From Nitrospirota bacterium (GTDB lineage: Bacteria; Nitrospirota; Nitrospiria; 2-01-FULL-66-17): a DNA stretch of 38,121 nucleotides. Under the pieces are notes generated by a model, which was not told the origin of the DNA, ran no database searches, and saw only the letters and a program-made list of their open reading frames with translations. Where the stretch lies: assembly GCA_016201825.1 (NCBI GenBank), contig JACQCD010000071.1, positions 1-38,121 of the forward strand. The letters are read 5' to 3'. Position numbers and translations under genes: made by a program. Shown piece by piece: positions 2,830 to 23,032 of the stretch (position 1 is the first letter of the stretch; the number at the start of each line of letters is the position of its first letter).

Positions 2830-2943
2830 GATTCCGCCGTGACTGCGCCGCGGGTTACACGCGCGTTCGCTCATCGGTCCTGGAGGGGGAACCGATCGTT
2901 CACCCCGCCTCTGGGAGGTCACACCAGATGGCGTGGGAACGCC

Positions 2944-2972
2944 AACATAAAGGAACCGATGGAAAATGTCAA
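2944..2972 (-). promoter_or_regulatory. sigma70-type promoter for FG-GAP gene
   Basis: Read on the minus strand, TTGACA (2972-2967), a 17-bp spacer and TATGTT (2949-2944) give a perfect -35 and a fair -10. Transcription would start near 2937, leaving a leader of about 108 nt before the ATG at 2829. The secreted FG-GAP gene can thus be expressed separately from the upstream exopolysaccharide genes. Confidence 0.6.
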
Positions 2973-3049
2973 TCCCCCTCAAGCATGCGTCATGTCTTCC
3001 CATTTTTTCATCCCATCCTGTTGGTTCGGAAGTTCATCTTGTGCCGCGG

Positions 3050-8221: not shown

Positions 8222-9682
8222 CTAACCGTTCTTGAGATTACCGACCGGACGCAGCTTCACGACGGGCCGCATGATCCGGTGCCGCTCCAAGCAGCCCATC
8301 AAGCGGTCGATGGGATCCGATGACCGGGCTGGAACCTCCTCGCGCTTGAGCACGGCGCCCTTCCGTCCCCTCGTCATCCGAAATCGTGTCACCGACCCCT
8401 CCGCCGTCGGCAGACGATTCGACCGTCTGGCCACTTCGATGAGGTTTCCGGCGCCATGGTCGTAGGAATGGTATCGCCCCTCCGTGCCGTCCGCCCCAAC
8501 CCCGAGATACGACGGGACGTCGAAGGACCCGGCCACGATGGTCGGCCGATCCGGAACGAGGCGGCAGGCGTTATGTCGGGCCACCCACGCTCGTTTCCCC
8601 TCCACCATCTCCTCCCAGATCCCGTTATGGGGAATATCGCAGAACAGGTCGGTGGTGGCGCGCGGTGACAGCGCCTCGCGCACACCGTCACAAATGGCCT
8701 TCACCGTCGCCAGTCGATAGGCAAACCCGAAGTTGGTCGCCATGGCGATCGCCTGTCGGAGCATCACGCCCTCCTCCGAGTGCGCCGGAAACATCGTCCA
8801 GCCGTTTTGCCTGAAATGGAGCGCCCACTTCCGGCCCACCGAGCCGTGCATCATGCGCTGCCCGTAGTGAAATAACAGTTTAGACAGGAAAAACATGGCA
8901 ATGCGCGGCCCGTATAATTTGCTGCGCCGGGAATAATGATGGAGGAGCGTTCCGCCGAACGGCCCGGGCCCCAGGTGGTACATGACGACAACCTGGCCCT
9001 CTTTGAACCCCCACCGTGCGCCCAGGCTTCGATCCAAGAGCCGGTCCACGACCTGAACCTCCAGAAAGTGATTGCCCCCGAAATTCAACCCCATCTCCGC
9101 GCGGCAGAACGGGGTCCGCAGAAGCTGAAACGGCACCACGCCGCCGTTGGCGCCCAGGTCCCCTCCGATCGGGACGCACCCCTTGCCCTCGATCCGATCG
9201 AGCACCTGTTGATCAAATCCGTACTTTCCGATCACCCCCTGTCCGCCCTCGACCAGGACCCGACGGAGTTCGTCCGCCGACAGGCTGTATCGGTTGGTGT
9301 CAAACGCATGCGCCGCCGCGTGCGAATTCACCCGTGCAAAGAACGCCTCGAGGCGATCGGGCGAGAGATCGTCGGCCCGGAGATCGGTCATGACGATTCC
9401 CATCCCATCGTTCACGGCCACGGAGGTAAATTCCGGCACGATAACGTCTCTCGTCGCGATGGCGATGCTGGACGGGATCTCCATATCGGCCTTTTGATGA
9501 AGGTCGGGAAGCGCGAGCACGGAGTCCACCTCAGGGAGGCCCGCGATATCGGCGAGCCGATCGCGGATCTGGGGCTCGCCCGGTTCGCCGAGGGACAACA
9601 TCGTCAGTTTCCCCTTCATCCGCACCGCATCTTGCTCCCACGGCACCGACGCCAATTTCATGGTCTCTCGACTTCCATTCAT
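8222..9682 (-). CDS. divergent RtcB-like protein, metal-site residues changed
   Basis: 486 aa; ATG at 9682 preceded by GAGGAG nine bases away. The RtcB (3'-phosphate RNA ligase) fold is recognisable in order: ALPDLHQKAD (57-66), LNFGGNHFLEVQ (199-210), a His at 236, PHNGIWEE (351-358), and HGAG (409-412). However, the stretch that is normally VDIGCG reads VNDGMG (90-95), so the metal-binding Asp and Cys are Asn91 and Met94, and the HSGSRG motif reads HLGPGP. The four conserved His (205, 236, 352, 409) remain. Normal Mn/GTP-dependent ligation therefore seems unlikely. It is embedded in an exopolysaccharide operon, 7 bp before the CDP-alcohol transferase gene, which suggests a new role in glycan or phosphoester chemistry rather than tRNA repair. 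Confidence 0.85.
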   Translation of the reverse strand: MNGSRETMKLASVPWEQDAVRMKGKLTMLSLGEPGEPQIRDRLADIAGLPEVDSVLALPDLHQKADMEIPSSIAIATRDVIVPEFTSVAVNDGMGIVMTDLRADDLSPDRLEAFFARVNSHAAAHAFDTNRYSLSADELRRVLVEGGQGVIGKYGFDQQVLDRIEGKGCVPIGGDLGANGGVVPFQLLRTPFCRAEMGLNFGGNHFLEVQVVDRLLDRSLGARWGFKEGQVVVMYHLGPGPFGGTLLHHYSRRSKLYGPRIAMFFLSKLLFHYGQRMMHGSVGRKWALHFRQNGWTMFPAHSEEGVMLRQAIAMATNFGFAYRLATVKAICDGVREALSPRATTDLFCDIPHNGIWEEMVEGKRAWVARHNACRLVPDRPTIVAGSFDVPSYLGVGADGTEGRYHSYDHGAGNLIEVARRSNRLPTAEGSVTRFRMTRGRKGAVLKREEVPARSSDPIDRLMGCLERHRIMRPVVKLRPVGNLKNG

Positions 9683-9731: not shown

Positions 9732-11264
9732 TCATGGCGAGCCGGACCCGACCCTCGGCCCCCGCGTCAAATATGCCGAACCGGGAAGCCGAAACGACGC
9801 GTACACGCCCCGCAGGATCCTGAGTTCGTCCGGGGAGAACGCCTTCAACCACAGCAAGAGGCCCAGGTACGCGAAGGCACCCGTCGCCGCGACTAAAAAC
9901 ACGTTCGCGCCGCGTATCGAGAACACCAACAGCCCCATGCCCGCCGCCGCCACCAGCGGTTTTCTGGCCTCTCGGAGGATCTCGGCCACGCTCAGATACT
10001 TCGAGAGCTCGAGCTGGCACACCACGAAGATCGCGAGCTCCGCTCCCAATTGCGCCACACAGGCCCCGGCGAATCCGTACGGCCGGATGAGGACGGCGCC
10101 CAAGGCGACGTTGGCGATCAGGGCCGCCACGACCGCCCGCAGGTAGACGCGCTGCGCATCCATCGCGGTGAGCACGTAGCGGGACATGAGATTAAAGAAG
10201 ATGAGCGTGAGGCCGAGGCTCATGATCTTCAGTGCGACCCCGGCCTGACTAAAACCCTCCCCGCGAAACAGAAGAGGCACGAGGCGTTCCGAAAGGAGAA
10301 ACAACCCGACGACCATCGGGAGCGTGACCACCACCTGATATTTGGACGTTCGCCTCAGCGCGTTCCGGATCGCCTCGGGGCCTTCTTGCGCGCGCCGCGA
10401 CAGGGCGGGAAACACCGCCATGCTCAGCGCCGAGGAAATAAAGCCGAGCGGCTGCGACAGCATGTACGCGACGTTGAAGTAGGCGACGTCGGTATCGGTC
10501 GACAACGTCTTCAGCATCAAGATCCCGATCCTGCCGTATAAAACCACCCCGAACATGGCCAGGGCGAAGGGCAGTCCTTGGATGACCAGGGCCTTCAGCC
10601 GGTCCAGCGTCGGCGCAAAGACCGGACGGCACATCCCGCGCGAGACGATGACCCCTCCCACGCCCAGACGGATCAGAAACGCGATCGTGGCGGAACCCAG
10701 AAACCAGGCCAACGACGCCTGGAGGAGAATACAGAGCGCGATGCCGGCCACCCACAAGATCTGGCTGACCATCAAGAGCAGCGATTCCAGATCGAGCCGC
10801 TCGTACGCCCGGAAGATCCAAATGGACGCGTCCTGACTGAAATCAATGAGCGCCGTGGCAGACACTAGACAGATCAGGGTCGCCCGGACCGGATCGAAGA
10901 CGAGCCACGCGCTCGTCGCGATGCCAAGGAGCAGCACGCCGGAGACGCCGGCCTTGATCACCAGCGCGTCGCCGAAGTGACGACCGGCGTTCGCCTTGTC
11001 CCTTGCGATCTCCTTGACGGTGATGATGCCGACTCCGAGATCAGCCCCGCTGCCGATCAAATGGATGAGGGCGTAGTAGAAGGCGTAGTTGCCGTATCCT
11101 TCCGCGCTCAGATAGTTCCCGAGCAGGACCATTCCCCCCACGTTGATGAGGGCGCTGAGCACCTGGGCGGTGAGTCGGAATGAGAAGTTGCGACCGATGA
11201 GCGTGGCGCCGCGCGCTCGATCACTCGATTCCAGAGGCATCGCCTGCTGGATGGGGCGTGGCAT
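9732..11264 (-). CDS. Wzx-like polysaccharide flippase (MOP/PST superfamily)
   Basis: 510 aa with about 12-14 hydrophobic helices. The N-terminal part (RNFSFRLTAQVLSALINVGG, then LGNYLSAEGYGNYAFYYAL) is typical of PST exporters. Family role: flipping undecaprenyl-diphosphate-linked repeat units across the inner membrane. An in-frame ATG lies at 11276, but the ATG at 11264 is preferred because it forms TGATG with the methyltransferase stop and has GGGTGG eight bases upstream. It belongs to the Wzx/Wzy set with the Wzy-like gene at 13282-14682. Confidence 0.9.
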   Translation of the reverse strand: MPRPIQQAMPLESSDRARGATLIGRNFSFRLTAQVLSALINVGGMVLLGNYLSAEGYGNYAFYYALIHLIGSGADLGVGIITVKEIARDKANAGRHFGDALVIKAGVSGVLLLGIATSAWLVFDPVRATLICLVSATALIDFSQDASIWIFRAYERLDLESLLLMVSQILWVAGIALCILLQASLAWFLGSATIAFLIRLGVGGVIVSRGMCRPVFAPTLDRLKALVIQGLPFALAMFGVVLYGRIGILMLKTLSTDTDVAYFNVAYMLSQPLGFISSALSMAVFPALSRRAQEGPEAIRNALRRTSKYQVVVTLPMVVGLFLLSERLVPLLFRGEGFSQAGVALKIMSLGLTLIFFNLMSRYVLTAMDAQRVYLRAVVAALIANVALGAVLIRPYGFAGACVAQLGAELAIFVVCQLELSKYLSVAEILREARKPLVAAAGMGLLVFSIRGANVFLVAATGAFAYLGLLLWLKAFSPDELRILRGVYASFRLPGSAYLTRGPRVGSGSP

Positions 11265-12118
11265 CAGACCACCCATGAACTCGCGGCCTGCCCGAGGCCC
11301 ATGAGGCCCACCGTGATCGCCTGCATTCGCTCGCCGCGCACGCGCTCGATGGCGTCAACATGGTTCAGGTCAATCTCGACTTCGACGTGGGAGGCCGGTT
11401 TTTTCGCTTTCAGAATCAGCGCGCAGCGAAGCTGCCGAGCCGGTCTCCATTGAGCGATCGCGAGATGAAACAGATGGAACAGTTCAAACACCACGGGAAC
11501 TTTGACGAACCAGGTCGGCCCATTCGACACGAACTCCACCTCGGTGGGGTGAAACCCGCTCGCGCGCGCGGTGCGGACCAGGCGGGCGGCCGTATTGCAC
11601 CGATACCGAGTGGGATACATGTCCGCCTCCCGCCCTCGGCCATACCGCATTCGGCCGGCCCACAGGTGGAACCGAAACGACGTCACGTATGCCGCCAAAG
11701 CTTTGTAGGAATAGAGGTTCGGCGTCTGCATCAAGATGGTGCCCCCCGGCTTCAAGACGCGGGCCATTTCGCGAAAGGCGGTGGTCGGTTCATCGAGGTG
11801 CTCCATCACATTCTCGCAGAGGATGAGATCGAAGCTCTCATCCTCAAACGGCATGTTTGAAATCGAATCAAGGTAGAACTCGCTGTGGAATCTCGATCCC
11901 GCTCGCGGGTCCAGGTCAATGCCCACCACCTGGCAGAGGTCTCGATAGGGCCGAGTGACACTGTGTTTATCCCAGCCGCATCCGGCATGCAGAATGCGCA
12001 TACCTGGCCGGATCGCGTGGCTTACCATCTCTTTGTAGGTGATGGTGGCATTTCGTCCTTCGTTCCACACGTCCCGGAAGAGACGAGAACGGAACGTCTG
12101 ACCGACGAATCCCTTCAT
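11264..12118 (-). CDS. class I SAM-dependent methyltransferase
   Basis: 284 aa. Motif I is ILHAGCGWDKHS (42-53), the acidic residue after beta-2 is in VGIDLDP, and motif IV/post-I are DLILCENVMEH and RVLKPGGTILM, as in Methyltransf_11 proteins. AGGGGA lies before the ATG. It is flanked by GT4 and flippase genes, so a sugar O-methylation or modification of the lipid-linked repeat unit is the likely task; the acceptor cannot be told from sequence. Confidence 0.88.
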   Translation of the reverse strand: MKGFVGQTFRSRLFRDVWNEGRNATITYKEMVSHAIRPGMRILHAGCGWDKHSVTRPYRDLCQVVGIDLDPRAGSRFHSEFYLDSISNMPFEDESFDLILCENVMEHLDEPTTAFREMARVLKPGGTILMQTPNLYSYKALAAYVTSFRFHLWAGRMRYGRGREADMYPTRYRCNTAARLVRTARASGFHPTEVEFVSNGPTWFVKVPVVFELFHLFHLAIAQWRPARQLRCALILKAKKPASHVEVEIDLNHVDAIERVRGERMQAITVGLMGLGQAASSWVV

Positions 12119-12143: not shown

Positions 12144-13301
12144 TCATCGCGACCGCTCCCCCACCGCGGAGAGCGCGCGGACGACCTTCACGCCCTTGTC
12201 CCTGAGCTGTTGGAAGTAGATGTCGCGGAGCGCGTCGACGATCCCTCGCTCATCGAACTCCGCCACCACCGCTTCGCGCGCCCGACGCCCCATCGTCTCC
12301 CGCAACATCGGGTCGTGAATCAACTCGGCAAGCCTTGCGGCCAGCGCCTCGGCGTCGCCCAAATCCACCAGAAAGCCGGTGAGCCCGTCCTGCACAACTT
12401 CTTGAGTGCCTTTCACCCGGGTCGCCACGACCGGGGATCCCATCGCCATCGTCTCGAGCAGGGCGCGGGGGATCCCCTCTTTGAAGGAGGTCAACACCCC
12501 GATATCGGTCTGAGCCAAGAGGGCCGGCACGTCGTTGCGGTACCCTAAGAACCGGATGAACTCATCGATCCCCGTCCTCGCGCACAGCCCCTCGTACGTT
12601 CCCTGCAGGTGCCCCTCGCCGATGAGCCAGACCCTGAAACGTTCTCCGCGTTCCTTAAGAAGCCGGACGGCTTGGAACAACATCGGGTGGTTTTTGACGC
12701 CTTCGAACCGAGCCACGCAGGTGATGGTCACGTTTCCGTCGGCGACCGGCTGCCGCATCATCGGATCGAACTGCTCGAGGTCGATGCCGTTGCCGATGTG
12801 GCGCAGCCGGTCTTCCGACACGATGCGATACCGTCGGGCCTCTTCCATATCGGCCTTGTTCTGACTCAACAGCATATCGGTCACCGATCCGGCGACCCGC
12901 TCGAGCCACGCGAAGAGCAGGCGAGTCGGTTTCGAACTGCCGTCATGAAAATGAAACCCGTGCACGGTATGGATGACGACGGGCACCCTCGCCGCCCAGG
13001 CCGCAAGGCGACCGATGAATCCCGGAATGGATGAGTGCGTGTGAACGAGATCGATCCGTTCGCGCCGGAGATAGGCGGCAATTTGGAAGAACGCGAGCGC
13101 ACTCTTGAAGACGTTGTAGTTTCTCGGCAGACTGACCGTATGAACCGGGATGCCGTCCGCACGCAGCGTCCGCACGAACGGGCCGTCGATGCAGATGATG
13201 CGGTTGTCCACCCCGCTCGCTCTCATCATGCTCACCCGGTTCCGCAACAGTTGCTGCGCCGCCGAGCTCACGCTGATGATATCAACGACCTTGATCGCCA
13301 T
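12144..13301 (-). CDS. glycosyltransferase family 4
   Basis: 385 aa from the ATG at 13301 (MAIKVVDIIS), which overlaps the end of the Wzy-like gene by 20 bp; an in-frame start at 13403 would add 34 unlikely residues. A GT-B fold is indicated by the N-terminal Rossmann strand, VHTHSSIPGFIGRLAAW (HxHxS acceptor region), and the C-terminal donor signature EGIPRALLETMAMG with the E-x7-E pair, followed by PVVATRVKGTQEVV. It is a retaining cytoplasmic glycosyltransferase that would extend the lipid-linked repeat unit. It is the only glycosyltransferase besides the priming enzyme in the window, so more must lie elsewhere or the repeat is very short. Confidence 0.9.
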   Translation of the reverse strand: MAIKVVDIISVSSAAQQLLRNRVSMMRASGVDNRIICIDGPFVRTLRADGIPVHTVSLPRNYNVFKSALAFFQIAAYLRRERIDLVHTHSSIPGFIGRLAAWAARVPVVIHTVHGFHFHDGSSKPTRLLFAWLERVAGSVTDMLLSQNKADMEEARRYRIVSEDRLRHIGNGIDLEQFDPMMRQPVADGNVTITCVARFEGVKNHPMLFQAVRLLKERGERFRVWLIGEGHLQGTYEGLCARTGIDEFIRFLGYRNDVPALLAQTDIGVLTSFKEGIPRALLETMAMGSPVVATRVKGTQEVVQDGLTGFLVDLGDAEALAARLAELIHDPMLRETMGRRAREAVVAEFDERGIVDALRDIYFQQLRDKGVKVVRALSAVGERSR

Positions 13302-14682
13302 TCCCTCGTTCTCCGACCGCCCGCAGGCTCCACGCCCTCGACAGATCAGCGCTCCCCGCCTCAGACGGCCGAGAACCGACCGGATAGAGCAGGTGAAAAA
13401 CATAGATGAGCCCCAGCAAGACCCAAAACCCTCGAAAGTTCTCCAGACTGATCGTCAGCCCCTGAGCGGCGATCGCCACCAAGGCCGCGAGCAAACACGC
13501 CGCCATGAGCGCCTGCGTCCGGTCCACGCGCTGGAAGATCCTTGGCGCCAGCAGGACCACGAACGACAGCAACAATCCGAGGAAGAGCAAGAGGCCGACC
13601 AAACCGGTTTCGGCCAGAATCCCGAGAAAAGTATTGTGGGGTATGTGCTGGATCCCGGTTTCCTGGATCAGGACGACCTTAAAGTTGCCCCTTCCGATAC
13701 CCGTCACGGGGCTCCGTTCGAAAAACGCAAGGGCTTGGCTCCACAGACGGTACCGCTGAAGATGGGAGGGGTCGTCGAAATCGCTCGCGGAAGCCAACCG
13801 GTTGATCACCGGTTGGAATTTATCGATCACGCCTTGACTCGACACCGCGAGTGAACCGACGACCACCACCCCGGCGAGGGCCGTCCCCACGAGGGCAAGC
13901 CGGATGCGGCCCGAGCCGGAGATCACGCCGAATACCGCGATACTCAGGACGCACGCGGTCACCCCTCCCCGCGATCCGGAGAGAACCAGCGCCAGGAGCT
14001 GGAGCGCCATCGCCGACACCACGACCATACGCGCTCGGATCGTCGCGGTCTTGGCATCGATCAGCAGGGCGAACGCCAGGAAAAAACTCAACGACAGATA
14101 CGCGGCGAACAGGTTCGCGTCGTCGAAGGTTCCGGTGGCCCGATGCCCTTCGACGAACGGCAAGCTCTGGCCGGCCGTGAAATGGAGAAACGAGCCCGCC
14201 ACGCCGAGCCCCGCGATCACGGTACTGGCGACCAGCCATGCCCGGAGGACCACCGAAAGGTCGTCTCGAGAGTGACTCAGGTTGACCGTGGCGATGAAGT
14301 AGGCGAAGAGCGAAATGTATTTGAGCAAGGAGATGACATAGAGCCAGTCGGCCCCGTCGCCAAAGCGATTGATGCCGACTAACATCGAGAACGCGACCCA
14401 CCCGAAGAGGGCCGCCGTGAGACCGATGAACGGGAGTCGTAGGCCTTGTTTCGAGACCGAGGCCACCACGAGTCCATACACCATCAACGCAACCAGGACG
14501 GCATCGGACAAGGCGAGGTTCGCGCTGACCGCCCCGACATCGGTCACACTCGAAATGGGAAGGGTGAGAACCAGCAGGACGGACCACACCCTATTGAGAG
14601 GCACCGAGCGATACAAGACCCATCCGGCCAGCACGATGGACAGGGGGATGGCGAGCAGCGCGATGACCACGACCGTGGGCAT
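13282..14682 (-). CDS. O-antigen ligase / Wzy-like polymerase
   Basis: 466 aa from the ATG at 14682, 10 bp after the sugar transferase stop. About 11-12 hydrophobic segments, with the Wzy_C-type periplasmic loop visible as GIGRGNFKVVL followed by HIPHNTFLGILAETGLVG, the usual H-N-x-x-L signature of this superfamily. Family members either polymerise undecaprenyl-linked repeats or ligate glycans to lipid A. Co-occurrence with Wzx, Wzz and Wza points to the polymerase role. An in-frame start at 14739 would overlap the preceding gene by 47 bp and has a poor leader. Confidence 0.87.
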   Translation of the reverse strand: MPTVVVIALLAIPLSIVLAGWVLYRSVPLNRVWSVLLVLTLPISSVTDVGAVSANLALSDAVLVALMVYGLVVASVSKQGLRLPFIGLTAALFGWVAFSMLVGINRFGDGADWLYVISLLKYISLFAYFIATVNLSHSRDDLSVVLRAWLVASTVIAGLGVAGSFLHFTAGQSLPFVEGHRATGTFDDANLFAAYLSLSFFLAFALLIDAKTATIRARMVVVSAMALQLLALVLSGSRGGVTACVLSIAVFGVISGSGRIRLALVGTALAGVVVVGSLAVSSQGVIDKFQPVINRLASASDFDDPSHLQRYRLWSQALAFFERSPVTGIGRGNFKVVLIQETGIQHIPHNTFLGILAETGLVGLLLFLGLLLSFVVLLAPRIFQRVDRTQALMAACLLAALVAIAAQGLTISLENFRGFWVLLGLIYVFHLLYPVGSRPSEAGSADLSRAWSLRAVGERGNGDQGR

Positions 14683-14692
14683 CCCGACCCCG

Positions 14693-15697
14693 TTACCTCG
14701 CGCCCTGCCCCAGCAGGACGATCTTGACCGTCTCAACAAGGATTTTAAAATCTAAGGCGAGCGACATGTTCTTGAGGTAATACAAGTCGTATCGGAGTTT
14801 CTCTATGGTATCCTCCACCGTCGCGCCGTAGCGGTATTTCACCTGGGCCCACCCCGTGATTCCCGGCTTGATCGTGTGGCGAATGGCGTAGAACGGGATT
14901 TCGGCCTGGAGTCCGGCGACGAATTCGGGGCGTTCCGGTCGTGGGCCGATAAAACTCATTTCCCCCTTCAGGACGTTGATGGTCTGGGGAATTTCGTCCA
15001 ACCTGAGCTTTCTCAACCACCGCCCCACCCGGGTCACGCGCGGATCTTCTTCCTGGGCCCAGACCGGACCGGAATCGGCCTCGGCATCGGTCACCATCGA
15101 ACGAAACTTCAACAGCCCGAAGGGCGTATTCCCCGCGCCGACACGCGTTTGCCGATAAAAGACCGGGCCGCGGGAGTCCAGCTTGATCAAGAGTGGAATC
15201 GTCAGAAAGAGGGGAGCGGCCAGCAGCAATCCGGCGGTCGCGCAGAGCACATCGAGAACCTGCTTGACCCACAATGTCGCCTTCCGACGGTCGAATCCTT
15301 TCGAGAAGATCAGCCAGGCCGGGCGAAGCTCCTCGACGGGCACTTTGCCGGTCAACCCGGCATAGAATGAGACGCCATCGACGACCTCGACTCCGCGAAC
15401 CCTGCACAGCAGCAGATCGTCAAGCGGAAGTTTCCCTCTTCGCTCGGGAAGAGCCACGATGACTTTTGCTATGCCGAGGGTCTCGACCAGCGAAGAAATT
15501 TGGTCCGGCGTCCCGATAACCTTGGGATTGACGATCGACTCGCCGATCCTGGTCGGGTCCTCGTCGATAAAACCCACGACCTCGAACCCGCTCCGGCGGT
15601 GCTTGCACAGATAGCGGCCCACTGATTTGGCAAGATCCCCGGTGCCCACAATCAGCACCCGTTCATTCCATCGTCCCGTGATCAGTTCATTCAACAT
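14693..15697 (-). CDS. priming sugar-phosphate transferase (PHPT) lacking N-terminal membrane domain
   Basis: 334 aa. It starts directly with a Rossmann-like nucleotide-binding domain (VLIVGTGDLAKSVG, 14-27), then one membrane helix (147-170) and the bacterial sugar transferase catalytic domain, with KFRSM (197-201), the DEIPQ catalytic pair D234/E235, and FIGPRPERPEF (249-259). Family role: transfer of hexose-1-phosphate from UDP- or similar donor to undecaprenyl phosphate. WbaP/WcaJ/EpsB-type enzymes are usually about 440-480 aa with four extra N-terminal membrane helices. Only 18 bp separate the start from the preceding gene, so those helices are really absent here, not just unannotated. 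Confidence 0.9.
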   Translation of the reverse strand: MLNELITGRWNERVLIVGTGDLAKSVGRYLCKHRRSGFEVVGFIDEDPTRIGESIVNPKVIGTPDQISSLVETLGIAKVIVALPERRGKLPLDDLLLCRVRGVEVVDGVSFYAGLTGKVPVEELRPAWLIFSKGFDRRKATLWVKQVLDVLCATAGLLLAAPLFLTIPLLIKLDSRGPVFYRQTRVGAGNTPFGLLKFRSMVTDAEADSGPVWAQEEDPRVTRVGRWLRKLRLDEIPQTINVLKGEMSFIGPRPERPEFVAGLQAEIPFYAIRHTIKPGITGWAQVKYRYGATVEDTIEKLRYDLYYLKNMSLALDFKILVETVKIVLLGQGAR

Positions 15698-15715: not shown

Positions 15716-16855
15716 TCAGCGGCGGGAAAGACCGTAATAGTAATTGAGGTAATCGTGATCCTTCAGGTCGACCTGGTTTAACACCACCCCCACCAGGTTC
15801 GCCTTCACCCGCTCCAACTGCTCCTTGGCCTGTTGGATGATCCGCGCCTGAAGGCCATCGGCCTTCACAACCAACAACACGCCATCGGCGAGCGCGGCTA
15901 GGGTCGCCGCTGAACTGGCCAGGGCCACCGGAGGCGCATCGACCAACACCACGTCGAATCGTCGGGCCAGTCCGTCCAGCAACGCCTTGAACCGCTCGGC
16001 CGTGGCGCGGTCCTGAAGATCGAAGGGAATGGCTCCGCTCGTCATGACCTTGAGATTGTTCACGTCGGTCGCTTTGAGATAAGTCGGGAGCCATGCGGAC
16101 AGAAAGGGCTGTTTTAAGTAGTCTCGGAACCGCCGCGAGATGAACGCGTCGATTTCGGCCCCGGTCTGCACTTCAGATTCCCGATCCGTCTCAGGCACCT
16201 CTGAGAACAGAATCTTGGGTTCCCGCACCATCGACATTCGGTACAGGCATTCTTTGAGTTGAGAATCGAGTGATGAGTGAAGGTCGGTCGGCTCCAGGTA
16301 CCCCAACCGATGCAGGGTGTCGCCAAGCGCGTGCCCGCTCTCGCTCAGGGTCTGCAACGCGGCGTCCCGCTCGTCTTCCGTGATCCGGCCGGCCTGAACC
16401 AAGAGGCTGCCCAATCGCCGCTCGTCCGGTCGTTGCGGCCAATAGGCCCCGAAGATCCTTCCCCGGTGAAAGATGAGCGAGAAGTTTTCGTGATCCCCGG
16501 CGATCATCAGTCGCCCCGTCTTTTCCTGGATGCGGAGCAGTTCCACCCAGTCGCCCACTCCCAAGCGATGGGAGTCCGCCTTCCCCAGGTCAATGCGGCT
16601 CACATCGTGGAGGGCCTCCCCCACACCCGAGGGATTCCGCACGCCCAAGAGGGTGTGAAGAGTGGGCTTGATCCGGTCGCTATCCACCACGACGACGCTC
16701 TGCTTGGCGAAGCTGGCGAGCGCTCGGCCGCACTGTGCGGTCACCGATGACTTGCCCTCCGCGGGTCCGCCACTGGTGACGACCAGCGTGCGGACGCCTT
16801 GGGCGGCCAATCCCTGAATTGCCGTTGCTAACGCTTGGTAGTAGACCATTTCCAT
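15716..16855 (-). CDS. CpsD-like BY-kinase with DUF4388/PATAN-like insertion in the ATPase domain
   Basis: 379 aa, start overlapping the Wzz-like gene by 28 bp. Walker A is SGGPAEGKSS (28-37), Walker A' VVVVDSD (54-60), Walker B FDVVLVDAPP (300-309), and a terminal Tyr cluster has Y369, Y372, Y373 and Y374: a cytoplasmic bacterial tyrosine kinase that controls polymerisation through the Wzz-like partner. Between A' and B, roughly residues 95-260 are foreign to the family. WVELLRIQEKTGRLMI, then a strand-turn-strand with FHRGRIFGAYW, match DUF4388, and LGSLLVQAGRITEDERDAAL plus LGDTLHRLGYLEPTDL are the paired helices that often follow it. The kinase sequence resumes at NLKVMTSG. DUF4388 is known from gliding/signalling proteins, so the insert may make kinase activity responsive to another signal. 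Confidence 0.88.
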   Translation of the reverse strand: MEMVYYQALATAIQGLAAQGVRTLVVTSGGPAEGKSSVTAQCGRALASFAKQSVVVVDSDRIKPTLHTLLGVRNPSGVGEALHDVSRIDLGKADSHRLGVGDWVELLRIQEKTGRLMIAGDHENFSLIFHRGRIFGAYWPQRPDERRLGSLLVQAGRITEDERDAALQTLSESGHALGDTLHRLGYLEPTDLHSSLDSQLKECLYRMSMVREPKILFSEVPETDRESEVQTGAEIDAFISRRFRDYLKQPFLSAWLPTYLKATDVNNLKVMTSGAIPFDLQDRATAERFKALLDGLARRFDVVLVDAPPVALASSAATLAALADGVLLVVKADGLQARIIQQAKEQLERVKANLVGVVLNQVDLKDHDYLNYYYGLSRR

Positions 16856-18369
16856 CGCTGTGGCCCTTTGGGGATCATCCCCAGAACGGGTAAGTGGAGG
16901 TACGTCATGACATCCTGCGATGTTCTGATCGTCCGCCTGACGTACTCCTTGAAAAACGCCAGCCCAAGTCCCACCATCAACCCCACCACGACACTCAGCG
17001 CGAGATTGAGGACTTTTCGAGGTCTGATCGGCACCGGCGGCTCCGTGGCGATGGCCGCCGGATGCACGAGCTGGATCACGGGAGTCTGAATCTTTCCGGT
17101 GATGTCGGACTCTTTCAGCTTTGCTAGGAGCAGGTTATAGAGATCTCGATTCGTATTGAGCTCCCGGTCTAGCGTCGAATATTCTAGCGCTTTTTTATTG
17201 ATCCCGTGCATTTCCTGCTCGGTCTGGGCGCTGGCTGACTTGAGATTCTCTTCCCGCGAGATCAAGATGGCATGTTCGGCCTTGAGGCTGGTGACGGCGT
17301 TGTCCAGTTCCTTCCGGATGTTGGCCTCGATGGACGCCACGGCGGATTCCAGCGTCTTTACCTTCGGGTGTCGCGATTTATAGGCCTGTTTGGCCTTCGC
17401 CAGTTCGGTCTGCGCAACCGATAAGTCCCGCCGGAGGGTGTCCAGCGTCTGACTCTCGATCGGAAGCTGATCCCGCTGGGAGTAATCGGCCCTCTCCATG
17501 ATCTCCCGCAGCTTATCGAGCCTCGCTCCCGCGGCAAGCCGGTCGGTCTTGATCTTGACATAGGAGGCGTTGAGGCTCGCGAGCTTGTCGCTGAGCTCTT
17601 TGAGTTTTCCGTCCAGCGAGAAAAGTCCCTCGCGATCCTTGAACGCATAAAAGGCCCGCTCTGATTCCTCGATTCTTCCTTTCACATTCGAGAGCTGGTC
17701 GGTCATATAGGCCGTCAGATTTTTCTTCGTGTCCGCGCCCTGCTGGGTCTGGTACTCGATGAACAGACGCGACAGCGTATCACCGACCAGTTTCGCCACG
17801 GCGGGCACCTGGTGGTCCACGTGAATATTGACCAGGCGAGTGCCCCGAACCGGCTCCACCGTGATCATCCCGAACAACAGATCAACCTGCGCATTGAACT
17901 CCGCCCGTTGCGACTCCTCGTCCGAGATGTCCGGCGCTGGAGACGAACGCGCCCATTGCGGGAGGAATCGTTCGACTTCATCGAGAGCCGGCGCGGCCAC
18001 CCGCTTCACGCGTTCAAACACGCTTGGCGGATCGTCCAGGTTCCGGATGTCCGACTTCTCGCGGAGCGCGGTCACCACCCGTTCCAGTAACGTCCGGTTA
18101 GTGATCAGCCCGACAGCCGTATCCAACGAGAGCGCATCCGATTGCGCGTTGGGGTTCTCGACGACCGCGCCGGTCAACACCGACCGGGTCGGTTCCTTCT
18201 CGATCAGAATTAGGCTCGTTGCCCGATAGACCGGCTGCACCAGCGCGTTCAGGGAAACGCCCAGGAGGAGGAACACCACCAGCGATCCCAGCACGATTCC
18301 CTTCCGGCGCTTGACCACCGCCCATGAATCTCTCAGATCGATCTCACCACGCTCCGGCATACTCGTCAT
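16828..18369 (-). CDS. Wzz/GumC-like polysaccharide co-polymerase
   Basis: 513 aa. Two membrane helices (about 25-45 and 455-475) bracket a large periplasmic part with long coiled coils (about 200-400). The N-terminal Wzz domain carries VYRATSLILIEKEP, and the second helix is preceded by the Pro-rich PPVPIRPRKVLN. The C-terminus ends after LPVLGMIPKG with no ATPase domain, so the kinase is the separate downstream protein, as in CapA/CapB-type pairs. AGGAGAGG precedes the ATG, 6 bp after the Wza-like gene. It sets chain length and couples the polymerase to export. Confidence 0.92.
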   Translation of the reverse strand: MTSMPERGEIDLRDSWAVVKRRKGIVLGSLVVFLLLGVSLNALVQPVYRATSLILIEKEPTRSVLTGAVVENPNAQSDALSLDTAVGLITNRTLLERVVTALREKSDIRNLDDPPSVFERVKRVAAPALDEVERFLPQWARSSPAPDISDEESQRAEFNAQVDLLFGMITVEPVRGTRLVNIHVDHQVPAVAKLVGDTLSRLFIEYQTQQGADTKKNLTAYMTDQLSNVKGRIEESERAFYAFKDREGLFSLDGKLKELSDKLASLNASYVKIKTDRLAAGARLDKLREIMERADYSQRDQLPIESQTLDTLRRDLSVAQTELAKAKQAYKSRHPKVKTLESAVASIEANIRKELDNAVTSLKAEHAILISREENLKSASAQTEQEMHGINKKALEYSTLDRELNTNRDLYNLLLAKLKESDITGKIQTPVIQLVHPAAIATEPPVPIRPRKVLNLALSVVVGLMVGLGLAFFKEYVRRTIRTSQDVMTYLHLPVLGMIPKGPQRWKWSTTKR

Positions 18370-18375
18370 CCTCTC

Positions 18376-18963
18376 CTAAAAGAGCCGTTGGGGCACGCTG
18401 ATCCGGTCCCCGGTCTGCAAGACCACGTCTTGGTCCTTGCCTTCCTGAACTTTGAGCAGATTGATTTCGAAGGTCTTGGGTGTCCCATTCTCCAGCCGGG
18501 TCACCGTCGTCCGCGCGGGCGACGCGTAGTCCGTAAACCCGCCCGCCAGGATGCAGGCATTGAGGGCCGTCAGTCCCTCTTGTATGCCATACGCCCCCGG
18601 ATGCTTGACTTCTCCCACGACGTAGACCTTTTTCCCGTACTCCTTCACGCTCACCAACACTTGGGGATCGACAAAGAAATCCTGCGCCAGAATCGTCCGG
18701 AGCTTCTCCGCGATCGCAAACGCCGTGAGTCCCCCGACCTCAAGTTCCCCGACCAGCGGACTGGTCATCGTGCCCGAGGAAGAGATGCCAGCCGTAAAAT
18801 CCTCCTGCTTTTCGCCGCCGGCATACACGGATACCTGGAGAATGTCTCCGGGACCGACCGGATACGAGGGGGTCTGGGCAAGCAGTGACCCGGCGCCACC
18901 GCACAGCGCCACCAGGACCATCACGAATGCCACTACTGTGTTTCTTGTGTTTTTTATCCGCAT
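18376..18963 (-). CDS. Wza-like polysaccharide export protein
   Basis: 195 aa from the ATG at 18963 (MRIKNTRN), which begins a clear signal peptide ending near LLAQ-TPSYPVGPGD. An in-frame ATG at 19011 overlaps the upstream gene. The Poly_export domain (YPVGPGDILQVSVYAGGE, GTMTSPLVGELEVGGLT) is followed by one SLBB domain (KVYVVGEVKHPGAYGI, then GGFTDYASPARTTVTR). There is no lipobox Cys and only one SLBB, so it is the short type that works in the periplasm with a separate outer-membrane barrel, probably the upstream gene product. Confidence 0.92.
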   Translation of the reverse strand: MRIKNTRNTVVAFVMVLVALCGGAGSLLAQTPSYPVGPGDILQVSVYAGGEKQEDFTAGISSSGTMTSPLVGELEVGGLTAFAIAEKLRTILAQDFFVDPQVLVSVKEYGKKVYVVGEVKHPGAYGIQEGLTALNACILAGGFTDYASPARTTVTRLENGTPKTFEINLLKVQEGKDQDVVLQTGDRISVPQRLF

Positions 18964-19001
18964 TGTCTCAGGACCTCGCGTGATCATTCCCACCGACACC
19001 T

Positions 19002-20198
19002 TCAGTGCCAAGCTGCAGTTAACGAAACACCTAACCGATTCCGGTGAAAATCGAGGGGACTGTTCGCACCGGACGCCGCCTGACGCAGATGGTCATAGTC
19101 GATCTGACCGGTCAACCACGACCGGACGGGTGCGGACAGCGAGGCCGACACTCGATAGACTTCGGTCCGCTTTCCCTCGCTCTGGAACGGTCGGGTTCGT
19201 CCATAATCCGCCTCCAACAACCCCGTGACCTCTCCTGCCCACCGCTTCCGCCCCTCAATCGAGACACGATGGGTCAGAGTCGGACCTAAATAGCTGCCGC
19301 CCTCCGCATCGAGACGACTGTCCCATCGGGCCGAGACGCGTCCGACGTTCGACAGCCGGGTGACCTCGGCCTCCACGGTGGTCGCCTCTTCGTGAATGAT
19401 TTTCAAGTACCCCGTCATGGGAACGCCCGGCGCCTCGCTCGGCCCCTTCACGGCAGCGACCACCACCGGCCGGTGGTGTCGTGGCCCGCCACCAGGGTAA
19501 TCCACCAGTGCGGCTCCCAACTCAAGTTCGCTCGACACCAGGCGGGAATGGGAACGGCGCAGACCAACCGTCATGATTTGCGATCGAAGCACGGTGTCAT
19601 CCCCGACCTGCAGGTCTCGCCCACGGTAGCCGATCAGCCAGGTATCCTCACGCGTTCTGATCGGGAAAAAGGCCGCCGCCCACGATTCGAAGCGACCATC
19701 ACCGAAGGAGACCGACTCATAGTTGTGCGTCTTCAGCTCGTAAGCGGCCTCCCCCTGCCAGCGATCGACCCGTATCGATCCGATGGTCCGTCGGGCGTTC
19801 TCACGCACCAACACGGCCTGCTGATCGAAGTTGATCGGGTCGTGCGACCGAACAAAACGGTAATCCATCGCCAGCGCATTATCCTCGGACGGCTTGTAGG
19901 ACATCCGTAAGACCGCCGTATCCGTCGACGTGGTCGGAGTCGGGGTACGATCGTAGAATTCGTAACTACGACGAGCGCGAGCCTCCCACGTGGAAAGCTT
20001 CCCGGTACGGCCAACGGTCAGTTGGGGCGACACAACCTGCACCCAATCGCTCATGCCGTTCGCGCTCTGGAGGACGTTATCATCATATCGGCTTTCCACC
20101 TTCAGCTCCGGCCCAAACGCTGTCGGGCCAGCGGCCTCGGCCCCAGCCCCCATCCCCAGCCACCCGAGGGTGAGACAGATTGCAAAGCGGAGTTTCAC
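19002..20198 (-). CDS. outer-membrane beta-barrel protein of exopolysaccharide locus
   Basis: 398 aa with a GTG start at 20198; an in-frame stop about 24 bases upstream leaves no other good start. Signal peptide: MKLRFAICLTLGWLG, cleavage near AEA-AG. The mature part is made of alternating polar/aromatic strands (for example YDDNVLQSANG and RRSYEFYDRTPTP), typical of EpsL/BcsC-type or generic outer-membrane barrels next to PEP-CTERM-like exopolysaccharide genes. It is the first gene of the locus and 38 bp ahead of the Wza-like gene, so it is the best candidate for the outer-membrane pore. No enzymatic motif is visible. Confidence 0.8.
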   Translation of the reverse strand: MKLRFAICLTLGWLGMGAGAEAAGPTAFGPELKVESRYDDNVLQSANGMSDWVQVVSPQLTVGRTGKLSTWEARARRSYEFYDRTPTPTTSTDTAVLRMSYKPSEDNALAMDYRFVRSHDPINFDQQAVLVRENARRTIGSIRVDRWQGEAAYELKTHNYESVSFGDGRFESWAAAFFPIRTREDTWLIGYRGRDLQVGDDTVLRSQIMTVGLRRSHSRLVSSELELGAALVDYPGGGPRHHRPVVVAAVKGPSEAPGVPMTGYLKIIHEEATTVEAEVTRLSNVGRVSARWDSRLDAEGGSYLGPTLTHRVSIEGRKRWAGEVTGLLEADYGRTRPFQSEGKRTEVYRVSASLSAPVRSWLTGQIDYDHLRQAASGANSPLDFHRNRLGVSLTAAWH

Positions 20199-20973: not shown

Positions 20974-22185
20974 CTAAGCACCTTCAACCGCGCGATACCC
21001 CGCGAGACGGATGGCTTGACGAATACGCTCGGGCGTGGCGGCTGGTCCCTCCAGGGAAACGTCGGCGGTCCGCGACGGAAGATCGACTCGCACGGCGGTG
21101 ACGCCCTCCAGCCGGCCGATCGCCCGCTCCACCGCCCGCACACAGTAGGAGCACGTCATGCCGTCGACGATGACACGAACGTGCCGCGTGCCGTTACCTT
21201 CCGGCACCGCGGCCACGCCGGGCGCCGCATTCGGCGATTCAGCGGTGGGATGGTGGCTGTGTTCAGTATCGCGGAGCGAGGGATGCTCATGTTGATGGAG
21301 AATGTCGCCGTGTTGGTGAGAATGTTCATGGCCGACCGCGGGTACAACGGACGCGGGGACCGGCCGGACCACGGCGCGGCGGATCGAATCATACGCCAGC
21401 GCCGCGGCGAACACGGCCGAGGCGAACAGGACGATCGTCGCCCCGGAAGCCGCGTTGGTATGAAAGCTGAAATACATTCCGCCGACTCCGCAGAGCACAC
21501 CGATCCCGACCGACGCGAATACAAGCCGGTGAAAGCTGTGCGTCAGCAGACGCGCAGTCGCCGCCGGGATGACGATCGCGGCGACCATCAGCATCACGCC
21601 GAGGACCTGCATTGACACCACGATGGTTGCCGCCAGCACCAGGGCGAATGCCGTTTCGACCCACTCACTCGGCACACCGTACACCTTGGCAACCTCGGGA
21701 TCGAACGTCGTGAAGAGGAGCTGTTTGTACAGCACAAAAATCACGAGCGCCGAGAGCACCGACACGCCCGCGATGACGACGAGGTCCTCCGTGGTCACGC
21801 CGAGGATATTACCGAACAGCGCCGCCTCGAAGTTGCGGGTGAACCTCCGCACGCGGCTGATCAGCACGACGCCGACGGCGAAGCTCGCCGTCGTGACGAT
21901 CCCAATCACCGCGTCGGCGCCTATCTTCTTCCGCTTCGCGACGGCGTTGATCAGCAGCGCGGACATGAATCCCCACAGGCCCGCGCCCAGGTAGAAATTC
22001 CAATTCATCACGTAGCTGACCACCGCGCCGCCGAATACGGAATGCGAGAGCCCGTGGCCGATGTAACTCATGTTGCGGAGGACGATGTAGACGCCGATCA
22101 GGCCGCAGATCGCACCGGTCATCGCCGCCGCGAGCAGCCCGTTTCGGAAAAACTCGTACTGCAGGGGGTCAAACAGGATCTCGAT
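20974..22185 (-). CDS. metal ABC transporter permease fused to His-rich linker and HMA domain
   Basis: About 403 aa if translation begins at the ATC at 22185. Residues 1-270 are an ABC-3 (ZnuB/MntB/TroC) permease: IEILFDPLQYEFFRNGLLAA, then IYVLRNMSYIGHGLSHSVFG-like text (GVYIVLRNMSYIGHGLSHS), and about eight or nine helices. A linker (286-312) has ten His (HEHSHQHGD, HQHEH, EHSHH). Residues 335-403 are a heavy-metal-associated domain with GMTCSYC (342-348). No ATG, GTG or TTG occurs in frame near the conserved N-terminus; AGGAGG lies six bases before the ATC. It overlaps the ATPase gene by 17 bp. Zn, Mn or Cu-type import is possible; His and CxxC residues favour Zn, Cu or Ni. No substrate-binding protein gene is adjacent. 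Confidence 0.85.
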   Translation of the reverse strand: MEILFDPLQYEFFRNGLLAAAMTGAICGLIGVYIVLRNMSYIGHGLSHSVFGGAVVSYVMNWNFYLGAGLWGFMSALLINAVAKRKKIGADAVIGIVTTASFAVGVVLISRVRRFTRNFEAALFGNILGVTTEDLVVIAGVSVLSALVIFVLYKQLLFTTFDPEVAKVYGVPSEWVETAFALVLAATIVVSMQVLGVMLMVAAIVIPAATARLLTHSFHRLVFASVGIGVLCGVGGMYFSFHTNAASGATIVLFASAVFAAALAYDSIRRAVVRPVPASVVPAVGHEHSHQHGDILHQHEHPSLRDTEHSHHPTAESPNAAPGVAAVPEGNGTRHVRVIVDGMTCSYCVRAVERAIGRLEGVTAVRVDLPSRTADVSLEGPAATPERIRQAIRLAGYRAVEGA

Positions 22186-23032
22186 CGCCGTCCTCCTGCC
22201 GGGCTGTCCGAGCGGAATAGTGGGCCCCCGCCTCCGGACTGTCGGCGATGAGCAAGAGCCCGTTTTGTCGGACCACCACCATTTCGGAATTGTAGGTGCG
22301 ACTGAGAATCTCAGAGGTGAACACCTCTTGGGGATCACCCTGCGCCGCAATCGTTCGATTGAAGCAGATCACCCAAGGGAGGTGCCGCGCCACGCTGTTG
22401 AGGTCGTGGGTGGTCAGGATGATCGTGACCCCTTCCCGATTCAATTGCGACAGCAAGTGCAGGATGTGGTGTTGGGTCTTGAGGTCGACTCCCGCGGTCG
22501 GCTCATCCAAGATCAGGAGACGCGGTCGACTGATCAACGCGCGCGCAAGAAACACCCGTTGCTGCTCTCCGCCCGAGAGCGCCCGAATCTGGCGGTTGGC
22601 GTATTGGCGGATACCCAGGTGGTTCAACAGGTCGAGCGCAACCCGACGGTCCTCGCGAGTCGGCCACGGCAACCAACCCATTTCACGGTGACGCCCCATC
22701 AGGACGACCTGTTCGACCGTCACCGGGAAATTCCAGTTGACCGTTTCGATTTGGGGGACGTAGCCGACTCCCCGCACCGTTTGTCCCACAACGCGCTGTC
22801 CGGCCACCGTGACCGTGCCGGCGGTGATCCCCACGATCCCCAGGATCACCTTGAGCAGCGTGGTTTTTCCCGAGCCGCTCGGTCCGACGATCCCGGTATA
22901 CAACCCTTCCGGAATCGAAAGGTCGATCCCCTCCAACACCATCTTGTTGTCATATCCGGTGCTGATGCCTTCGAGTTGGACGATCGGCGGCTGCGCGCCA
23001 TCGACCCGAAGCGAGGGCCCGTTATCGCTCAC
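22169..23032 (-). CDS. metal ABC transporter ATP-binding protein (ZnuC/MntA type)
   Basis: 287 aa, GTG start. Walker A GPSGSGKTT (50-58 region), Q-loop VPQIETVNWNFPVTV, signature LSGGEQQR, Walker B LLILDEPTAG and H-loop TTHDLN are all intact. The text VNWNFPVTVEQVVLMGR is characteristic of the manganese/zinc (ABC-3 permease partner) subgroup. The end of the gene overlaps the permease start. A palindrome lies over the promoter just upstream, so metal-dependent repression is likely. Confidence 0.92.
   Translation of the reverse strand: MSDNGPSLRVDGAQPPIVQLEGISTGYDNKMVLEGIDLSIPEGLYTGIVGPSGSGKTTLLKVILGIVGITAGTVTVAGQRVVGQTVRGVGYVPQIETVNWNFPVTVEQVVLMGRHREMGWLPWPTREDRRVALDLLNHLGIRQYANRQIRALSGGEQQRVFLARALISRPRLLILDEPTAGVDLKTQHHILHLLSQLNREGVTIILTTHDLNSVARHLPWVICFNRTIAAQGDPQEVFTSEILSRTYNSEMVVVRQNGLLLIADSPEAGAHYSARTARQEDGDRDPV
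22192..22197 (-). promoter_or_regulatory. AGGAGG ribosome site that fixes the unusual start of the permease gene
   Basis: A consensus Shine-Dalgarno inside the ATPase gene end. The optimum distance points to an ATC codon at 22185; CTG at 22176 is the next possible start, and the first downstream in-frame ATG (22122) would delete half of the first membrane helix. Confidence 0.55.

What the first reader, a model, noticed from the sequence alone, without database searches (positions are those of the whole stretch)
15716..16855. Tyrosine kinase of the exopolysaccharide locus carries a DUF4388-type insertion in its ATPase core
The CpsD-type kinase is normally about 210-230 residues with Walker A, A' and B close together. 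Here about 165 residues recognisable as DUF4388 plus its usual helical follow-on sit exactly between the A' strand and the NLKVMTSG strand, while all nucleotide motifs and the terminal Tyr cluster remain. It looks like a built-in sensor or interaction module that could tie polymer length control to another signalling pathway. I know of no described kinase with this arrangement.
Basis: partly seen in the sequence, partly recalled or inferred. Interest (0 to 1): 0.8.

Follow-up and report, generated by a model that had tools for sequence, protein, structure and literature searches.

The report
Sugar-polymer kinase with inserted sensor domain
A bacterial enzyme that helps control how long a slime-polymer chain grows carries, spliced into the middle of its catalytic core, a whole extra domain related to receptors for the biofilm signal c-di-GMP, and the same unusual build recurs in anammox bacteria and other unrelated lineages, suggesting a direct wire from cell signalling to polymer assembly.

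Summary
Confirmed and extended. The 379-aa gene lies on the minus strand (15716-16855), between a Wzz-type co-polymerase and a sugar transferase in an exopolysaccharide operon. DUF4388 is significant (E 9e-11, residues 99-227). The same insert at the same site occurs in 11 further kinases (Ca. Eisenbacteria, anammox planctomycetes, other members of the window's phylum), so this is a recurring subfamily. In ordinary relatives the corresponding linker is about 9 residues. AlphaFold2 (pLDDT 85, pTM 0.81) shows an intact kinase core with the domain looped out.

Insert kinases also lack the ring-contact motif ExxRxxR (0/12, against 66/82 ordinary ones) and mostly the Walker A' Arg (1/12). Best reading: a regulatory input module that takes part in kinase ring assembly, with c-di-GMP as probable ancestral ligand. 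In this copy three key binding residues are lost, so c-di-GMP binding here is doubtful and PATAN-like protein docking is a serious rival. No description of this architecture was found. New variant of a known kind.

The parts
15716..16855 (-). BY-kinase (CpsD/Wze type), 379 aa, with internal DUF4388/MshEN-like insertion
   Evidence: TIGR01007 122 bits (cut-off 108.05); AF2 pLDDT 85.2, pTM 0.81
16748..16771 (-). Walker A, GGPAEGKS (residues 29-36)
   Evidence: sequence; P-loop conserved in all insert kinases
16661..16696 (-). Walker A' region VVVVDSDRIKPT (residues 54-65); the Arg of DxDxR is not in place
16076..16594 (-). whole inserted segment (about residues 88-260), with no counterpart in ordinary kinases
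   Evidence: alignment A4; two-stretch HMM matches of ordinary kinases; linker statistics
16175..16561 (-). DUF4388 (PF14332), residues 99-227
   Evidence: E 9.1e-11; one search gives the same DNA coordinates
16259..16417 (-). MshE-related c-di-GMP motif (NF053729), residues 147-199, four-helix segment nested in DUF4388
   Evidence: 40.3 bits, cut-off 38; phmmer to MshE 5htl and PilF 6f8l; helices 144-207
15929..15949 (-). Walker B, VLVDAPP (residues 303-309)
15719..15751 (-). C-terminal Tyr cluster YLNYYYGLSRR (Y369, Y372, Y373, Y374)
16828..18369 (-). Wzz/GNVR polysaccharide co-polymerase, the cognate partner; overlaps the kinase gene by 28 nt; ends in LHLPVLGMIPKG, similar to the juxtamembrane end of Wzc-type proteins
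18376..19011 (-). Wza-type export protein (Poly_export + SLBB)
19002..20198 (-). outer-membrane beta-barrel protein, TIGR03016-like (weak)
14693..15697 (-). initiating sugar-phosphate transferase (TIGR03013, above cut-off)
13282..14739 (-). Wzy-type polymerase/ligase (Wzy_C)
9732..11276 (-). Wzx-like flippase (weak match, below cut-off)

Best explanation
The protein is the tyrosine kinase subunit of a two-gene polysaccharide co-polymerase (Wzz + kinase) in a Wzx/Wzy exopolysaccharide operon. A whole DUF4388 (PATAN-type) domain, which itself contains an MshEN-like four-helix c-di-GMP motif, is inserted between the Walker A' half and the Walker B half of the kinase. The insert acts as a signal-input module: ligand or partner binding changes how kinase subunits assemble with Wzz, and thereby autophosphorylation of the Tyr tail and polymer length. 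Because the family has lost the ExxRxxR helix contact that normally holds half of the ring interface, the insert probably supplies or gates that contact. c-di-GMP is the probable ancestral ligand. In this copy the pocket is partly eroded, so the input may now be weak c-di-GMP binding or a protein partner. SHOWN: architecture, recurrence, predicted fold, motif losses. INFERRED: regulation, ligand, effect on ring assembly and polymer length.
For: DUF4388 and MshE-related motif both above curated cut-offs, and again in five of five relatives scanned. Same insertion site in 12 kinases against none in 82 ordinary ones. Confident model with intact core; Foldseek to VpsO TMt 0.77, Wzc 0.67. ExxRxxR 0/12 against 66/82 ordinary kinases, PPNPxEL 0/12 against 50/82; ExxRxxR is half of the octamer interface and needed for phosphorylation and polymer production (PMC3795738; PMC7485978). 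Seven of nine Wzz-fused relatives pass the published relaxed tandem MshEN motif (motif from PMC5013675). An anammox relative has a PilZ-tailed WecA-like transferase in the same locus. EpsG-type kinases carry the same MshEN motif at the N-terminus, so this pairing exists in another topology too. The window genome has 28 GGDEF matches, a single BY-kinase hit and two LMW-PTP genes.
Against: In the window protein 3 of 14 key MshEN positions are changed (Leu to R163, Gln to L170, Arg to A176) and neither half passes the relaxed motif; the first Arg and the first Gln of MshE are experimentally important for binding (PMC5013675). No ligand or activity data exist. The link between insert and lost ExxRxxR rests on only two well-supported clades, so the counts are not independent events. 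The role of the insert in ring assembly has no structural model behind it; oligomers could not be predicted here.
Confidence: 0.5

Rival explanations
1. The insert is a protein-docking module without nucleotide ligand, as PATAN domains of cyanobacterial response regulators dock on the pilus motor PilB; it recruits the kinase/Wzz complex to another machine or regulator.
For: DUF4388 corresponds to the PATAN domain (my own knowledge of the InterPro naming); PATAN mediates direct interaction with PilB (PMC10519157; PMC7690835). The pocket is eroded in the window copy, and standalone DUF4388 proteins of relatives mostly lack the tandem motif (2 of 30 pass).
Against: Seven of nine Wzz-fused relatives keep a tandem motif that passes the published relaxed pattern, hard to explain if the fold were only a docking surface. 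No partner is known.
Confidence: 0.25
2. A pseudokinase scaffold, like EcpK of Myxococcus and HfsB of Caulobacter: the protein supports Wzz by binding, not by phosphorylation, and the insert is tolerated or used for scaffolding.
For: ExxRxxR lost in 12/12, A' Arg lost in 11/12, Tyr tail absent in L028 and L030. Phosphorylation-independent co-polymerases are known (PMC12004946).
Against: Walker A Lys and Walker B Asp are conserved throughout and at least three Tyr remain in the tail of 9/12, whereas EcpK lacks Walker motifs and Tyr tail. The genome has LMW tyrosine phosphatase genes.
Confidence: 0.15
3. A structural insertion of no regulatory meaning that was captured once and only replaces the lost ring interface.
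For: Motif loss and insert occur together; the inserts form one side of the DUF4388 tree (78/86, not strong).
Against: Most nucleotide-site positions are kept in the fused clade, and an MshEN module is present in EpsG-type kinases, of which the one read in full keeps the ring motif.
Confidence: 0.09
4. Assembly or gene-fusion artefact.
For: The window is from a draft genome of 147 contigs.
Against: Same architecture in independent genomes from at least three phyla, 44% identical over the full length in Eisenbacteria.
Confidence: 0.01

Closest known systems
BY-kinases of PCP-2 systems (CpsD/CapB, Wzc, VpsO; TIGR01007)
   Same: P-loop fold, Walker A and B, Tyr tail, partner Wzz in the same operon
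   Different: 173-residue internal domain; ExxRxxR absent; A' Arg not in place; PPNPxEL loop absent
EpsG-type kinase (TIGR03029)
   Same: BY-kinase carrying an MshE-related motif (three members scanned are above the NF053729 cut-off)
   Different: there the motif is N-terminal, without DUF4388, and the one member read in full keeps an ExxRxxR motif; the window protein scores 73.7 against a cut-off of 313.8
DUF4388 / PATAN domain with its alpha-helical insertion (PatA, PixG, PixE)
   Same: same domain with nested helical segment
   Different: elsewhere described in separate proteins or fused to a receiver domain, not inside an enzyme core
MshEN c-di-GMP receptor domain (MshE, PilB/PilF, NfrB)
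   Same: two 24-residue motifs with a 5-residue spacer, most of the Leu cluster and the glycines kept
   Different: motif I Gln and Leu and motif II Arg lost in the window copy
EcpK / HfsB tyrosine pseudokinases
   Same: stand-alone kinase-fold partner of a kinase-less co-polymerase, with departures from the kinase motifs
   Different: EcpK lacks Walker motifs and Tyr tail, which are present here; no such insert reported

Membership tests
BY-kinase (TIGR01007) | score above the curated model cut-off | tested here: met
   122 against 108.05 bits, in two stretches
BY-kinase (TIGR01007) | Walker A and Walker B | tested here: met
   GGPAEGKS and VLVDAPP
BY-kinase (TIGR01007) | Walker A' DxDxR | tested here: not met
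   DSDRIKP; 1/12 insert kinases have it against 78/82 ordinary ones
BY-kinase (TIGR01007) | ExxRxxR ring-interface motif in helix alpha2 | tested here: not met
   0/12 against 66/82
BY-kinase (TIGR01007) | C-terminal Tyr cluster | tested here: met
   4 Tyr in the last 11 residues
BY-kinase (TIGR01007) | kinase fold | tested here: met
   AF2 pLDDT 85; Foldseek E 6e-9 to Wzc
BY-kinase (TIGR01007) | Tyr autophosphorylation | not testable with these tools
   needs protein
DUF4388/PATAN | PF14332 above gathering score | tested here: met
   42.3 against 25 bits
MshEN c-di-GMP receptor | NF053729 above cut-off | tested here: met
   40.3 against 38 bits
MshEN c-di-GMP receptor | tandem RLG...G...L...L..Q motif, strict or relaxed | tested here: not met
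   window copy: 0 hits; 11 of 14 key residues kept
MshEN c-di-GMP receptor | c-di-GMP binding | not testable with these tools
   needs ITC
EpsG (TIGR03029) | score above cut-off, N-terminal MshEN | tested here: not met
   73.7 against 313.8 bits; the motif is internal
BY pseudokinase (EcpK/HfsB) | Walker motifs and Tyr tail absent | tested here: not met
   Walker A, Walker B and Tyr tail present

The most novel reading that the evidence does not exclude
A bacterial tyrosine kinase family directly switched by c-di-GMP through an MshEN motif nested in a PATAN domain nested in the kinase core, joining second-messenger signalling and tyrosine phosphorylation in one polypeptide and taking over ring assembly from the lost ExxRxxR contact.
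Probability: 0.33. Interest if true: 0.85.

Novelty: new variant of a known kind. Interest (0 to 1): 0.62.

Why it matters
What upstream signal tells BY-kinases when to cycle, and so sets polymer chain length, is largely open. A kinase with a receptor-type domain in its core makes that question directly testable with purified protein. It would connect the main biofilm second messenger to tyrosine phosphorylation in one molecule, in bacteria of wide environmental interest (anammox planctomycetes and the window's own lineage). It also gives a natural test of whether the conserved ring interface is indispensable, because this family lacks it.

Tried and rejected
Artefact: rejected (independent homologues). 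Inherited in the window's own lineage: not supported, since it is alone among 270 genomes of its class and the genus and family relatives lack it. Two independent insertions: undecided; the kinase-core tree splits the insert kinases into two strong clades, but holding them together is not rejected (p-AU 0.549), and the insert tree puts all on one side with moderate support (78/86). First AF2 run with 11 sequences was poor in the C-terminal half (pLDDT 69); adding ordinary kinases solved it. My first motif regex missed many P-loops and was redone. A first kinase tree contained 9 insert columns by misalignment and was rebuilt without them. Literature searches for MshEN, DUF4388 or PATAN with tyrosine kinases gave nothing relevant.

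Full report
OBSERVATION. The ORF at 15716-16855 is real, on the minus strand, 379 aa. PF14332 (DUF4388) matches residues 99-227 at E 9.1e-11 (42.3 bits, cut-off 25). NCBIfam gives TIGR01007, polysaccharide biosynthesis tyrosine autokinase, above cut-off in two stretches, and NF053729, the MshE-related c-di-GMP motif, at 147-199 with 40.3 bits (cut-off 38). phmmer against the PDB hits BY-kinases (CapB, Wzc, VpsO, BceF) at the ends and MshE (5htl, E 9e-6) and PilF (6f8l, E 5e-6) in the insert. So the 'helical follow-on' is an MshEN-like segment; it also occurs in standalone DUF4388 proteins, 4 of 5 scanned being above the cut-off.

SURROUNDINGS. The gene follows Wza-like (18376-19011) and Wzz-like (16828-18369, overlapping the kinase by 28 nt) genes and precedes a TIGR03013 sugar transferase, a Wzy_C protein, a glycosyltransferase, a methyltransferase and a Wzx-like flippase: a Wzx/Wzy exopolysaccharide locus with kinase and co-polymerase as separate genes. 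It is the only BY-kinase-like match in its genome at E 1e-10 (genome about 89% complete). The genome has 28 GGDEF matches, two LMW-PTP genes and one other DUF4388 gene.

RECURRENCE. Two same-phylum genomes matched across the insert and a profile found a third. A scan of GTDB species genomes returned Ca. Eisenbacteria (two near-identical MAGs, 44% identity over residues 1-375), Brocadia, Jettenia and Scalindua, besides two MAGs that are the same as loci already found (L028 = G367, labelled Nitrospira sp.; L030 = G416, labelled Deferribacteres). That makes 12 proteins including the window. Eisenbacteria has the two-gene form, with a Wzz gene directly upstream; the others are Wzz-kinase fusions with a Wza-type gene upstream where examined (L027, L028, L032). 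A profile of insert kinases aligns continuously to these proteins (298-625 bits) but in two pieces to ordinary ones, whose linker is a median of 8.5 aa. Within the window's own class it is alone among 270 genomes. The phylum is probably Nitrospirota, inferred only from the record title of the G367 contig.

STRUCTURE. With 46 aligned sequences AlphaFold2 gives pLDDT 85.2, pTM 0.81: kinase strands 23-28, 54-58, 268-271, 302-306, 325-331 and 354-360 around an extra domain consisting of helix 100-109, strands 114-119, 124-130 and 133-138, four helices 144-207, strand 214-219 and helices 232-246 and 251-259. The top Foldseek matches are all BY-kinases (Wzc 3la6 E 6e-9; VpsO TMt 0.77).

WHAT IS DIFFERENT IN THE KINASE. 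ExxRxxR upstream of the P-loop is absent in 12/12 insert kinases and present in 66/82 ordinary ones; DxDxR is present in 1/12 against 78/82. The PPNPxEL loop is absent in 12/12 and present in 50/82. Walker A and B are kept in all, and 9/12 have at least three Tyr in the tail. Fisher p is 6e-8 for ExxRxxR, but the insert kinases form only two strong clades, so this is not many independent events. According to PMC3795738 ExxRxxR makes half the octamer interface and is essential for trans-autophosphorylation and polymer synthesis; PMC7485978 reports that its mutation in VpsO lowers polymer production. The inserted domain is therefore a natural candidate to replace or gate this contact. That is inference.

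LIGAND. MshEN uses two 24-residue motifs, RLGxxhhxxGhhxxxxLxxxLxxQ, with a 5-residue spacer (PMC5013675). The window has R147 L148 G149, G156, L167, then L177 G178, G185, L192, L196 and Q199, but R163 for Leu, L170 for Gln and A176 for Arg: 11 of 14. It fails the relaxed published pattern, while 7 of 12 inserts pass it in tandem (all Wzz-fused) against 2 of 30 standalone DUF4388 domains from relatives. Hence c-di-GMP is plausible for the family and doubtful for this copy. Supporting context: a PilZ-tailed WecA-like transferase encoded beside a Scalindua insert kinase, and EpsG-like kinases with the same motif at the N-terminus.

EVOLUTION. Kinase cores fall into window + Eisenbacteria (100/100) and the fused group (100/100); their union is not rejected (p-AU 0.549). 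The insert tree places all inserts on one side of a branch with moderate support (78/86). One insertion followed by scattered transfer or loss is the simplest reading; two events are not excluded.

LITERATURE. One paper in the library mentions DUF4388, on nitrite reductase. MshEN is reported fused to REC, HD-GYP, CheA, CheX, cyclase and Ser/Thr kinase domains (PMC5013675), with no BY-kinase in that passage. Subscription journals are mostly not covered. The equation of DUF4388 with PATAN is from my own knowledge.

VERDICT. A real, recurring, apparently undescribed variant of BY-kinases. Architecture is near certain; regulatory role likely; c-di-GMP as ligand is open and directly testable.

Noticed in passing
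L146, L147, L148 (TIGR03029 EpsG-like kinases); NF053729 over the first 54 residues of the translated stretch: EpsG-type exopolysaccharide kinases carry an N-terminal MshE-related c-di-GMP motif above the curated cut-off; the TIGR03029 title names them only as tyrosine kinases.
   Followed up: partly
L032:1816-3261: WecA-like sugar-phosphate transferase with a C-terminal PilZ domain in a Scalindua exopolysaccharide locus next to an insert kinase.
   Followed up: no
window 20974-22350 (-): ABC-3 (zinc/manganese-type) permease fused to a C-terminal heavy-metal-associated (HMA) domain, next to its ATPase gene at 22169-23032; an unusual fusion.
   Followed up: no
window 8222-9682 (-): RtcB-like RNA ligase gene lying downstream of the exopolysaccharide genes on the same strand.
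   Followed up: no
window 3050-7321 and 1237-3003 (-): A 1423-aa protein with PKD and right-handed beta-helix repeats and a 588-aa FG-GAP protein with a carbohydrate-binding domain, at the end of the same gene run; possible surface or matrix proteins.
   Followed up: no
L031 and L034: One Scalindua genome (SHMT01) holds two insert kinases on different contigs.
   Followed up: no
L028, L030: Two insert kinases have lost the C-terminal Tyr cluster altogether (tails LNHFKA and LNHVTS), hinting at phosphorylation-independent members.
   Followed up: no
standalone DUF4388 loci L001, L025, L121, L143: The helical insertion of DUF4388 domains in general scores above the cut-off of the MshE-related motif, so this domain family may be an unrecognised set of (often degenerate) c-di-GMP-receptor folds.
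   Followed up: partly
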